Source of the DNA: Desulfobacula sp.
GTDB taxonomy: Bacteria; Desulfobacterota; Desulfobacteria; Desulfobacterales; Desulfobacteraceae
NCBI RefSeq assembly: GCF_021107415.1
Contig: NZ_JAIOSW010000429.1
Location: 1 to 5,340, forward strand
Direction: 5' to 3'
DNA: 5,340 nucleotides
Position numbers and translations under genes: made by a program. Below are positions 1 to 2,032 of the stretch, piece after piece. The notes beneath the pieces were generated by a model. It was not told where the DNA came from. It was given only the letters and a program-made list of their open reading frames with translations, and ran no database searches. Each line of letters opens with the position of its first letter. Positions within the stretch are counted from its first letter, which is position 1.

Positions 1-246
1 ATCATGTTTGGCAAAGATCATGTAAGCTATTGATATAATAAGAAATATTAAGTTTTGTTACGTCAAGTGATGTATAAAGTTGAATGAGGTTCCCCGGGTC
101 TCCTCCGGGTCGGCTGTTAAATTCTGGGTGCAGAAAGATGATTTCTCATTGATAAGAAATGTTTGAAACGGTTTATTATAGGGCTTATTCAATGATGACA
201 CCCCGCAATGCCAAGGTCATTTATTTAGGTGCATTTTTTTGAAAAA
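1..246. other. AT-rich intergenic stretch, no gene recognised
   Basis: No frame on either strand gives a convincing protein here. The only compositional feature is a short GC-rich patch near 91-111. There the heptamer CCGGGTC occurs twice (94-100 and 105-111), and CCCGG (93-97) can pair with CCGGG (105-109) across a 7-nt loop. No T-run follows the hairpin on either strand, so it is not a typical terminator. A 22-codon ATG frame at 84 and a 27-codon frame through the same patch are both too short to call. The stretch may be degraded DNA from a former gene or mobile element, but nothing proves this. Confidence 0.4.
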
Positions 247-471: not shown

Positions 472-561
472 TCATTCAAAAGTCAGTTTTTTTCATTCCT
501 CTGTGTCTCCAATATAATTTAAGCAATTCATCCCAAAAAGAATAAAACCACTATAAAAAAG

Positions 562-630
562 TTTTCCTAAAAGTATTACATTTTTTTCCTAAAAGTATTA
601 CATTTTTTTCCTAAAAGTATTACATTTTTT
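562..630. repeat. Three tandem copies of a 22-bp AT-rich repeat
   Basis: The unit CCTAAAAGTATTACAT followed by a T-run starts at 566, 588 and 610, exactly 22 bp apart. The copies match at every base except the last of the third copy, and four T's at 562-565 continue the pattern to the left. The period is close to two helical turns, so the same face of DNA would be presented each time. The core AAAAGTAtTACaTTTT is a near-palindrome. The array lies about 180-250 bp upstream of the sigma-54-like promoter of the exoprotein gene, a usual distance for activator sites. A regulator-binding array is inference; polymerase slippage of a neutral sequence is the simple alternative. Confidence 0.9.
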
Positions 631-900: not shown

Positions 901-1584
901 ATGTCAAAACATTTAAAATTCTTGTTAATCGGTTGTATTATCTTAGTTACCCCCCATTCTGTTTTTGCTGACTATGTAGTGAATACAGGGCCAGGGAACA
1001 CATTTGTCAGTGGCGTCCAAGTGAAAAGCACTCAATGGGTGGCTGGTCAGTTTACGCTGAATCAAAGTTTTTCTACTATTGTGGACATTGAAGGGTGGTT
1101 CGCATTGACAGGCGGCACCATTACTGTAGCAATATATGGAAATAATTTCAATTCTGGATCCCCGATACCTGATTCAAACATAAGTTATGGCAGCTGGGCC
1201 TTCTCCGTTCTGGATATGGCTGATTATGATCCCAATAACAGCACCATAGATCCCGACACTCCTGACAGTTTTGGCTGGGCTGGCGTTTCAGGGGTATCAC
1301 TGAATTTATCAGCAGGAACATATTGGGCAGCTTTTGAGGTCCGTAGCGGACAAAATTATAATGGTTTTATGCCTGACATGTATGATGAAAACGATAATCC
1401 CTTGTCAAGCGATATTCTGGCTGAATATGCTTGGTGGCGCTCTCCTCGCTGGAGAAATGCCAATTCCAGTTATGAAACCTTTGGATTAAGAATTGGTAAT
1501 CCCGTACCCATACCCAGCGCCTTATTGCTCCTGGCTTCAGGTCTTCTGGGAATTGCTGGATTCAATAAAAGAAAACAAAAATAG
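901..1584 (+). CDS. Secreted PEP-CTERM (VPLPA-type) sorting-domain protein
   Basis: This 227-residue exported protein has a signal peptide (basic MSKHLK, hydrophobic 7-16, likely cleavage after V-F-A at 23). Its mature region is rich in Gly, Ser, Asn and Trp and has no cysteine. The C-terminus is a tripartite sorting signal: motif VPIPSA (202-207), transmembrane stretch LLLLASGLLGIAG (208-220), then a basic tail NKRKQK. This is the PEP-CTERM/VPLPA layout. In such proteins exosortase (EpsH/Xrt) is believed to remove the tail in the inner membrane, releasing the protein to the surface or the extracellular polysaccharide matrix. The QWVAGQFTL...DIEGWF segment (45-67) and GTYWAAFEV (139-147) resemble beta-sandwich cores seen in other members, but no enzyme motif is visible. 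An acidic stretch (105-122) could bind cations. No exosortase or polysaccharide genes are nearby. The gene appears monocistronic, with a candidate sigma-54 promoter upstream and a terminator 21 nt downstream. Its ligand and exact role are unknown. Confidence 0.9.
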   Translation: MSKHLKFLLIGCIILVTPHSVFADYVVNTGPGNTFVSGVQVKSTQWVAGQFTLNQSFSTIVDIEGWFALTGGTITVAIYGNNFNSGSPIPDSNISYGSWAFSVLDMADYDPNNSTIDPDTPDSFGWAGVSGVSLNLSAGTYWAAFEVRSGQNYNGFMPDMYDENDNPLSSDILAEYAWWRSPRWRNANSSYETFGLRIGNPVPIPSALLLLASGLLGIAGFNKRKQK

Positions 1585-1604
1585 GTTCATTAAAATAATT
1601 AAAA

Positions 1605-1635
1605 GCAGGGCCATTCAGTTGGCTCTGCCTTTTTT
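1605..1635 (+). terminator. Rho-independent terminator of the exoprotein gene
   Basis: GCAGGGCCA (1605-1613) pairs with TGGCTCTGC (1620-1628), giving nine pairs including one G-U, around a 6-nt loop. It is followed by CTTTTTT (1629-1635). It starts 21 nt after the TAG stop. Together with the upstream promoter candidate it makes the exoprotein gene a self-contained unit. Confidence 0.9.
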
Positions 1636-1790
1636 ATTTCTGCTTCAAGTTTTTTCTTATTTTAAATACACTATATGAACCAATTTCTGTTATAGAAGTC
1701 ATTTCTTTTTTCATCTTACCAATATATAAACCCACCAAATTCATAACCTGTCCATTCAACTATACTTGTAGTAAAATAGAATACGAATGC

Positions 1791-1819
1791 TTAAATTCTG
1801 TTCAAGTTTCTAATATAAT
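1791..1819 (+). promoter_or_regulatory. Candidate sigma-70 promoter for the GC-rich RNA element
   Basis: A perfect -10 box TATAAT (1814-1819) is preceded, after a 17-bp spacer, by a weak -35 box TTAAAT (1791-1796). The predicted start is near 1826, five bases before the first paired base of the structured GC-rich island. That placement is the main support, since TATAAT by itself is not rare in AT-rich DNA. The promoter could drive a small RNA, or a long leader reading into the tatD-family gene. Confidence 0.45.
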
Positions 1820-1825
1820 GAATTG

Positions 1826-1975
1826 ATTGAGGCTCTTTGGTTTCGGCAAAGGCAGGGGGGAAGAGGATGCTTCGGCCGGGTTTGAATCGCTGCGGAGGCA
1901 GGACGCCGGGAGCAGTGATTTCACCTCGTAGCCGGACATGGATGTCCGGCGAAGTTTAGGCCAAAGTATTGCCTT
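1826..1975 (+). ncRNA. Candidate structured RNA with GGA-loop hairpins (CsrA-type sites?)
   Basis: This GC-rich island in AT-rich surroundings has no good reading frame but strong pairing potential. The outer stem joins GGC (1831-1833) and CTTTGG (1835-1840) with CCAAAG (1961-1966) and GCC (1971-1973). CTTC (1870-1873) can pair with GAAG (1951-1954). One hairpin joins AATCGCTGC (1885-1893) to GCAGTGATT (1912-1920) and carries an inner GGC/GCC stem with loop AGGAC. A second is a perfect 8-bp stem, GCCGGACA/TGTCCGGC (1931-1938/1943-1950), with loop TGGA. GGA occurs six times in 1859-1942, and ACATGGATGT differs by one base from the CsrA selection consensus core ACARGGAUGU. CsrA/RsmA proteins bind GGA in hairpin loops, so a CsrA decoy RNA or a CsrA-controlled leader is a reasonable guess. 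No U-tract terminator follows. A dispersed repeat element is the main alternative. Confidence 0.4.
1931..1950. repeat. Perfect inverted repeat with GGA in the loop
   Basis: GCCGGACAT (1931-1939) and ATGTCCGGC (1942-1950) are exact reverse complements separated by GG. In RNA this would form an 8-bp stem closed by the tetraloop UGGA. It is the strongest hairpin of the GC-rich island. Its 3' arm could alternatively pair with CTTCGGCCGG (1870-1879), through CCGGCGAAG (1946-1954) with one bulged G, so two mutually exclusive folds are possible. Confidence 0.85.
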
Positions 1976-1990
1976 TCTCCCTGTCGTTCG

Positions 1991-2007
1991 ATGAGTTGTT
2001 TACTCAT
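1991..2007. other. Small inverted repeat upstream of the tatD-family gene
   Basis: ATGAGT (1991-1996) and ACTCAT (2002-2007) are perfect complements around the loop TGTTT. No T-run follows on either strand, so this is not an intrinsic terminator. Its second half overlaps the -35 box of the proposed tatD promoter, so it could equally be an operator. The role is undetermined. Confidence 0.4.
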
Positions 2008-2027
2008 TATGTGTTATTCGGTATATT
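1999..2027 (+). promoter_or_regulatory. Candidate promoter giving a near-leaderless tatD-family mRNA
   Basis: TTTACT (1999-2004, four of six consensus bases), a 17-bp spacer and TATATT (2022-2027, five of six) form a reasonable sigma-70 site. Transcription would begin at about 2033-2034, essentially at the ATG. That fits the absence of any Shine-Dalgarno sequence before this gene. The region is AT-rich, so the match could be fortuitous. Confidence 0.35.
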
Positions 2028-2032
2028 AAAAT

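What the first reader, a model, noticed from the sequence alone, without database searches (positions are those of the whole stretch)
1826..1975. GC-rich structured RNA candidate with CsrA-like GGA hairpins
A compact island with nested complementary arms lies just downstream of a perfect TATAAT. It contains six GGA triplets, two of them in hairpin loops (1901-1903 and 1940-1942). ACATGGATGT is one base off the CsrA selection core. The arrangement resembles RsmX/Y/Z or CsrB modules, or a CsrA-bound leader, and would link the region to post-transcriptional control. The 3' arm of the second hairpin can also pair upstream (1870-1879 with 1946-1954), which would hide or expose the GGA loop like a switch.
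Basis: partly seen in the sequence, partly recalled or inferred. Interest (0 to 1): 0.7.

Follow-up and report, generated by a model that had tools for sequence, protein, structure and literature searches.

The report
Dispersed hairpin RNA with CsrA-type loops
The stretch is one copy of a scattered family of about 150-letter folded elements in sulfate-reducing bacteria whose two hairpin tips look like docking sites for the global regulator CsrA, so a repeat that multiplies in genomes may also act as a sponge for that regulator.

Summary
In detail: window 1842-1989 (+) folds far better than chance (z -5.1), with GGA in two hairpin loops. The whole is larger than described: a closing helix (1851-1877/1959-1985) makes a three-way junction with two hairpins. 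It is not a lone sRNA gene or a tatD leader. Relatives lie scattered in 21 of 86 genomes of its nearest held relative's family (35 matches in one) and show no overall orientation bias to neighbouring genes. The helix keeps pairing while its sequence changes; G.U wobbles outnumber A.C mismatches 83 to 17, so the GGA strand is the one that folds. The loops match CsrA sites: CAGGACG (the CsrB repeat) and AUGGAU (ANGGAN), 39 nt apart. Architecture and loops resemble Rfam TwoAYGGAY (RF01731, Csr-Rsm clan), but the window fails that model and the hairpins come in the opposite order. TwoAYGGAY proved dispersed too, and in Bacillota it accompanies csrA (44 of 47 genomes against 169 of 252; phylogeny uncorrected). 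Best reading: a repeat-borne CsrA decoy RNA, a new variant of a known kind. Binding and transcription are untested. The proposed switch is rejected (about 20 kcal/mol worse).

The parts
1842..1989 (+). whole element: three-way-junction repeat, TwoAYGGAY-like
   Evidence: CM R1 match 1841-1989 (the window is one of the six sequences the model was built from); boundaries from comparison with five full-length copies
1851..1877 (+). P1, 5' arm of the closing helix (pairs with 1959-1985)
   Evidence: fold; covariation; arm-swap control
1959..1985 (+). P1, 3' arm
   Evidence: fold
1878..1926 (+). P2 hairpin: lower stems 1878-1881/1923-1926 and 1884-1893/1912-1921, purine internal loop 1894-1896/1908-1911, upper stem 1897-1899/1905-1907
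   Evidence: fold; helices 2-4
1899..1905 (+). P2 loop CAGGACG, identical to the CsrB repeat CAGGA(U/A/C)G
1931..1950 (+). P3 hairpin
   Evidence: fold and pair probabilities; helix 5
1937..1944 (+). P3 loop CAUGGAUG: ANGGAN hexaloop closed by C-G (A1938-U1943 pair probability 0.69)
1951..1958 (+). unpaired junction stretch GAAGTTTA; TTTA is invariant in the six aligned copies, other subfamilies read otherwise (e.g. GAATGAG)
1814..1819 (+). TATAAT; either the -10 of the copy's own promoter or a boundary motif. A TAATATA-like box recurs about 30 nt before P1 in six of the eight Desulfobacula-type copies aligned
   Evidence: not proven to be a promoter

Best explanation
Window 1842-1989 is one copy of a dispersed family of about 150-nt elements whose + strand folds as RNA into a three-way junction: a long closing helix of variable sequence (P1) and two hairpins (P2, P3) that each show a CsrA-type loop. 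Shown by computation: fold, pairing kept despite sequence change, strand-specific wobble use, loop conservation, dispersal, no overall orientation bias. Inferred: when a copy is transcribed (from the TATAAT at 1814 or by read-through), the rigid helix protects the RNA and holds the loops about 39 nt apart, so that one CsrA dimer bridges them and is taken from its mRNA targets. Copies spread as a non-autonomous repeat; their added dosage would tune CsrA activity or shield the element's own transcript. The mover is unknown.
For: Fold z -5.1 on the + strand. Six full-length copies: 18 of 53 pairs have changes on both sides (shuffles 9.3 +/- 2.0), and 87.4% of cells pair against 35.8-47.6% when slid by 1-3 columns. 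In 105 non-redundant copies each copy's own P1 arms match better than swapped arms (median 21 against 11 Watson-Crick pairs in 40 Desulfobacteraceae copies; 30 against 8 in 65 RF01731 copies). P1 wobbles: G.U 83 against A.C 17 (p 1e-11) in Desulfobacteraceae copies, 56 against 34 (p 0.026) in RF01731 copies. GGA in at least one hairpin loop (counted with two closing pairs) in 38 of 40 and 65 of 65 copies, in two in 25 of 40 and 53 of 65; two loops of the stricter consensus in 17 of 40 and 46 of 65, against 0 of 800 and 0 of 1300 mononucleotide shuffles. Loop sequences equal known CsrA sites, and CsrA bridges sites 10-63 nt apart (passages of PMC7652899). Nearest Rfam family RF01731 is in the Csr-Rsm clan. 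csrA present in 36 of 40 element-bearing genomes; in Bacillota 44 of 47 with the element against 169 of 252 without, p 8e-5.
Against: No CsrA binding or transcript could be tested. Flanks show no sense-strand promoter or T-run polarity (130 non-redundant copies; the exact TATAAT alone leans upstream, 8 against 2). Some loops are CACGA(C/G/T)G without GGA (9 of 64 motif loops in the Desulfobacteraceae set, and one CAGACG). SELEX hairpins mostly had four or fewer contiguous pairs; several of these stems are longer. csrA was not found in G012, G125, G002, G585, G639 and G663, though these bear elements, nor fliW in those six; gaps in the assemblies cannot be excluded. The csrA association ignores phylogeny and assembly completeness. 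The RF01731 wobble excess is not significant per copy (28 against 16, p 0.096), the copies were found with models that reward G.U over A.C, and a folded single DNA strand could also prefer G.T to A.C. In the arm-swap test 25 of 40 Desulfobacteraceae and 15 of 65 RF01731 copies do not exceed the 95th percentile of swaps. Below-cut-off Rfam matches also went to unrelated hairpin families (mir-266 on another copy, E 0.028; CRISPR-DR29, E 0.93, and mir-266, E 2.4, on the window).
Confidence: 0.5

Rival explanations
1. A MITE- or REP-like DNA repeat without RNA function: a transposase or recombinase recognises the folded single DNA strand, including the loops, and the CsrA likeness is coincidental.
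For: Many unlinked copies; near-identical copies in G046, many in arrays with other modules bounded by TATAA and with inverted ends ATGAAACTC/GAGTTTCAT (21 copies read); two subfamilies in G012 share about 15-45 nt of flank on each side, one of them ending near TATA (four copies each, by eye); no overall strand bias; no promoter polarity.
Against: No mover found: Y1 (RAYT-type) transposases were not found in 7 of 40 element-bearing genomes (G015, G053, G649, G625, G514, G683, G661), which have 3 to 9 matches each; most are drafts. Structure is kept in diverged copies. Loops match CsrA sites. The wobble bias fits RNA at least as well.
Confidence: 0.33
2. A cis-acting CsrA-bound 5' leader of the tatD operon (tatD and a ThiF-family gene), whose first start codon lies 44 nt downstream.
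For: The element ends at 1989, tatD starts at 2033 on the same strand. In the Desulfobacteraceae set alone copies lean to the sense strand, 23 against 12, p 0.09.
Against: No match to the element in 80 tatD loci (blastn; upstream stretches of 12 of them also read by eye). Over both sets copies lie 49 sense to 43 antisense between co-directional genes (p 0.60), 40 to 40 without G046.
Confidence: 0.07
3. A conserved stand-alone CsrB/RsmX/Y/Z-type sRNA gene.
For: GGA loops; TATAAT upstream, with a TAATATA-like box about 30 nt before P1 in six of eight Desulfobacula-type copies aligned.
Against: No Rfam match; no conserved locus seen, many dispersed copies; no terminator-like site listed at its 3' end.
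Confidence: 0.06
4. Chance structure in a GC-rich island.
For: None beyond the island's composition.
Against: z -5.1; homologues with compensatory change.
Confidence: 0.02

Closest known systems
TwoAYGGAY RNA (Rfam RF01731, clan CL00106 Csr-Rsm protein binding)
   Same: Long closing helix of variable sequence, three-way junction, two hairpins with CA(N)GGANG loops; often multi-copy and without strand bias. One Desulfobacteraceae copy (L123) matches the model end to end at 38.2 bits.
   Different: The window copy gives no RF01731 match up to E 10, and 1 of 13 copy-bearing Desulfobacteraceae genomes gave one, below cut-off. Here the hairpin with the purine internal loop comes first and the simple one second; in the RF01731 copies that I read it is mostly the other way round (by eye).
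CsrB/CsrC and RsmX/Y/Z
   Same: GGA in hairpin loops; the P2 loop equals the CsrB repeat.
   Different: No model match; two loops on one three-way junction instead of a string of hairpins (recalled for CsrB); dispersed repeat rather than one regulated gene.
REP elements / REPINs with RAYT transposases
   Same: Dispersed, palindromic, mostly between genes (15 of 93 copies overlap an ORF of 110 aa or more), in arrays in G046.
   Different: About 150 nt rather than 20-40 bp (PMC3733652, abstract start); no constant GTAG/CGTC tag next to the hairpin (GTAG in the window, L111, L112 and L115, other letters in other copies); Y1 transposase not found in 7 of 40 genomes.

Membership tests
TwoAYGGAY (RF01731) | score at or above the gathering cut-off (43 bits) | tested here: not met
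   Window: no match at gathering nor up to E 10. Best relative L123 38.2 bits.
TwoAYGGAY (RF01731) | two terminal loops with AYGGAY | tested here: inconclusive
   Window P3 AUGGAU fits; P2 AGGAC is the shorter form. RF01731 copies themselves mix both forms.
TwoAYGGAY (RF01731) | three-way junction under a long helix | tested here: met
TwoAYGGAY (RF01731) | order of the two hairpins as in the RF01731 copies read | tested here: not met
   Order reversed (by eye).
CsrA-binding RNA (works like) | loops that match CsrA sites at bridging distance | tested here: met
   CAGGACG and AUGGAU, GGA 39 nt apart; published sites and 10-63 nt range.
CsrA-binding RNA (works like) | binds CsrA in vitro or in vivo | not testable with these tools
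   Needs protein and RNA.
CsrA-binding RNA (works like) | occurs only where csrA occurs | tested here: inconclusive
   36 of 40; Bacillota 44 of 47; exceptions may be incomplete assemblies. The window's own genome is not held.
CsrB/RsmX/Y/Z | Rfam model match | tested here: not met
REP/RAYT | short palindrome with constant tetranucleotide tag | tested here: not met
   Length about 150; tag varies.
REP/RAYT | Y1 transposase in the genome | tested here: not met
   Not found in 7 of 40 element-bearing genomes, most of them drafts.

The most novel reading that the evidence does not exclude
TwoAYGGAY and its Desulfobacteraceae counterpart are mobile CsrA decoys: repeats that multiply in genomes of at least three bacterial groups and carry a selected two-site CsrA trap, so that CsrA titration capacity is set by a transposable RNA structure rather than by a dedicated sRNA gene. 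The trap may protect the element's RNA or its host from the cost of insertion.
Probability: 0.3. Interest if true: 0.78.

Novelty: new variant of a known kind. Interest (0 to 1): 0.55.

Why it matters
In 2014 CsrA-sequestering sRNAs were known only from Gammaproteobacteria, and TwoAYGGAY was predicted to be another such class (PMC4333381, passages). This work extends the architecture to Desulfobacteraceae and shows that both sets are dispersed, often multi-copy, and without overall strand bias to their neighbours. That speaks against the 'Cis-reg' type that Rfam gives RF01731 and agrees with the original table of 2010, which marks it as not cis-regulatory (PMC2864571, table passage). If the copies bind CsrA, repeat copy number becomes a regulatory variable, and an old question (what TwoAYGGAY does) can be tested with one binding assay.

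Tried and rejected
Switch (alternative pairing): rejected. Riboswitch or other Rfam family: none at gathering score. tRNA/tmRNA: none. Plasmid or phage origin: blastn gave two short weak plasmid hits (E 0.1 and 0.5) and no phage hit at E 1. tatD leader. RAYT mobilisation. IS110 as cause of the truncated copies: an IS110 gene (PF01548) starts beside one truncated copy (L082), but I saw no transposase-like ORF beside the truncated copies L081 and L116 (ORFs by eye; no family search run on them), so dropped. Flagellar link: two copies lie beside FliI-FliJ genes, yet only 2 of 30 loci with the neighbouring gene have a copy (the same two; 30 loci of 63 genomes with that gene, flanks up to 1.5 kb, some cut by contig ends), so dropped. 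cis strand bias: an early sense excess (27 against 11, my sum over the two groups) vanished with more copies (49 against 43). Sense-strand promoter or T-run: none. Terminal inverted repeats by folding 110-nt flanks gave uninterpretable outer pairs. R1 at order level: 19 of 389 genomes, all already positive.

Limits: CM searches score only a capped number of candidates per genome (36, 8, 9), so copy numbers are lower bounds and single copies may be missed. start from 191 copies that I picked from the listed matches, mostly high-scoring full-length ones (80 of the Desulfobacteraceae set, 111 of RF01731); 130 non-redundant flanks entered and 105 non-redundant copies. Gene context used ORFs of 110 aa or more, not a gene caller. 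The six-copy structure came from folds of those same six. Family, phylum and class names are mine: the tool tells no groups for these genomes; I took them from the record titles of L001 (Desulfobacula), L031 (Bacillota) and L041 (Colwellia).

Full report
What is in the window. The window comes from a relative of Desulfobacula: the TatD protein at 2033-2842 is up to 90% identical to unnamed metagenome proteins and 65-81% to listed proteins labelled Desulfobacula, 84% to one in a Desulfobacula MAG. The order is a protein with a PEP-CTERM-like tail (901-1584, label from recall; no Pfam or NCBIfam hit), the GC-rich element, tatD, a ThiF-family gene and a CoA ligase on the other strand. The + strand of 1826-1995 folds at -80.1 kcal/mol, z -5.1; the minus strand at -55.8, z -3.4. 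The fold is a three-way junction: P1 (1851-1877 with 1959-1985), P2 (1878-1926, loop CAGGACG) and P3 (1931-1950, loop CAUGGAUG).

It is a dispersed family. Blastn of window 1601-2032 against 80 tatD loci found no match to the element, and the upstream stretches of 12 of them that I read show none. BLAST with the element found it elsewhere in 10 of 97 genomes, at up to three places each (one of the ten, G076, is a 22-base match only). A covariance model from six full-length copies matched in 21 of 86 genomes of the family of G001, with 35 matches in G046, 26 in G040, 19 in G012 and 17 in G125 (at most 36 candidates scored per genome), and in 19 of 389 genomes of the order, all already known. 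In G046 the copies read are nearly identical, many in arrays with other modules that share TATAA boundaries; in G012 two subfamilies share about 15-45 nt of flank on each side. That is how an amplified, non-autonomous repeat looks. There is no overall strand bias: 49 sense against 43 antisense between co-directional genes, 40 convergent, 34 divergent, 25 at contig or locus ends (191 copies); the Desulfobacteraceae set alone leans to sense, 23 to 12 (p 0.09), RF01731 copies 26 to 31.

The structure is kept, and on one strand. In the six-copy alignment 18 of 53 pairs change on both sides, twice the shuffled mean, and sliding the partner by 1-3 columns halves the paired cells; the structure was taken from the same six, which inflates the paired percentage. 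A test free of alignment between copies gives the same: each copy's own P1 arms match far better than arms swapped between copies, although 25 of 40 Desulfobacteraceae and 15 of 65 RF01731 copies do not exceed the 95th percentile of swaps; shared arms within subfamilies are my explanation. With scoring that treats G.U and A.C alike, G.U outnumbers A.C 83 to 17 in 40 non-redundant Desulfobacteraceae copies, and 30 copies have more G.U against 2 with more A.C; in 65 RF01731 copies the counts are 56 to 34, and 28 to 16 copies (p 0.096). So the strand that carries GGA is the one that folds. The copies were found with models that reward G.U, which may add to the excess, but most matches lie far above threshold. 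RNA explains it best; a folded single DNA strand is not excluded.

The loops are CsrA-type. A review (PMC7652899, passages seen) gives the CsrB repeat as CAGGA(U/A/C)G, the SELEX consensus as RUACARGGAUGU, the RsmE loop as ANGGAN, and a bridging range of 10 to 63 nt. The window has CAGGACG and AUGGAU with GGA 39 nt apart. Among 40 non-redundant Desulfobacteraceae copies 38 have at least one GGA loop and 25 have two; among 65 RF01731 copies 65 and 53. A minority of loops reads CACGA(C/G/T)G and lacks GGA.

Nearest known family. A cmscan of 17 loci that hold copies matched RF01731 TwoAYGGAY over its full length in one of them, L123, at 38.2 bits, E 0.014, below the cut-off of 43; another copy gave a mir-266 match, E 0.028, far below that family's cut-off, so such scores alone prove little. 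Architecture and loops carry the comparison. [quoted passage not shown] TwoAYGGAY was described in 2010 (PMC2864571, table passage) and predicted in 2014 to bind CsrA (PMC4333381, passages). I found RF01731 in 47 of 299 Bacillota genomes (29 above cut-off) and 22 of 274 genomes of the class of a Colwellia (13 above cut-off), in several at the scoring cap of nine. Its copies share the long helix and the two loops, but the hairpin with the purine internal loop mostly comes second there and first here. I therefore call the window element TwoAYGGAY-like and do not file it as a member; common descent of the two sets is not shown. The searches (TwoAYGGAY, RF01731 and variants) listed papers on motif annotation, folding, function prediction and databases. 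In the five of which I read passages none reports dispersal; I did not read PMC7682815 or the whole of any paper.

Does it go with CsrA? csrA was found in 36 of 40 element-bearing genomes. In Bacillota, where csrA is not universal (213 of 299, 209 above cut-off), 44 of 47 element genomes have it against 169 of 252 others (p 8e-5); with genomes above the RF01731 cut-off only, 28 of 29 against 181 of 270 (p 4e-4). Phylogeny and completeness were not corrected for. The exceptions G585, G639 and G663, and G012, G125 and G002 in Desulfobacteraceae, also lack a detected fliW, which fits either real loss or gaps in the assemblies; they count against the reading as they stand.

Against a simple sRNA gene: 130 non-redundant flanks show no sense-strand promoter or T-run excess (promoter score Wilcoxon p 0.97; T-runs 70 against 60), though exact TATAAT is found upstream in 8 and at the mirror place in 2.

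Conclusion. The most likely reading is a repeat-borne CsrA decoy RNA (0.5); the main rival is a DNA repeat whose loops serve its own mover (0.33). Binding and transcription tests would decide.

Noticed in passing
window 561-630: Three head-to-tail copies of a unit of about 22 bases (TTTTTTTCCTAAAAGTATTACA) in an AT-rich gap, seen by eye.
   Followed up: no
window 86-115: A second short GC-rich island with self-complementary CCCCGGG/CCCGGG-like letters in AT-rich surroundings, seen by eye.
   Followed up: no
window 901-1584: Protein with a PEP-CTERM-like tail (label from recall), no Pfam or NCBIfam match.
   Followed up: partly
L151-L170 (G046): Element copies sit in arrays with other hairpin modules that share the ends ...GTTTCATATAA; a modular repeat system whose mover is unknown. 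An IS110-type transposase fragment (PF02371, L151 1683-2201) lies about 500 bases from one copy.
   Followed up: partly
L082 1501-2121: An IS110-family transposase gene (PF01548) starts about 21 bases from a truncated copy, as if IS110 had inserted into the repeat; REP elements are known IS targets (PMC1525189, abstract).
   Followed up: partly
L093 and L116: What looks by eye like the same LysE and DsbA-like gene pair is flanked by different fragments of the element at opposite ends in two genomes.
   Followed up: no
L133 1501-1674: A copy with an extra hairpin of about 25 nt inserted in the junction before the second P1 arm; other long matches (168-175 nt) occur in G042 and G125.
   Followed up: no
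RF01731 copies: Rfam types TwoAYGGAY as Cis-reg, but its copies lie 26 sense to 31 antisense between co-directional genes.
   Followed up: yes
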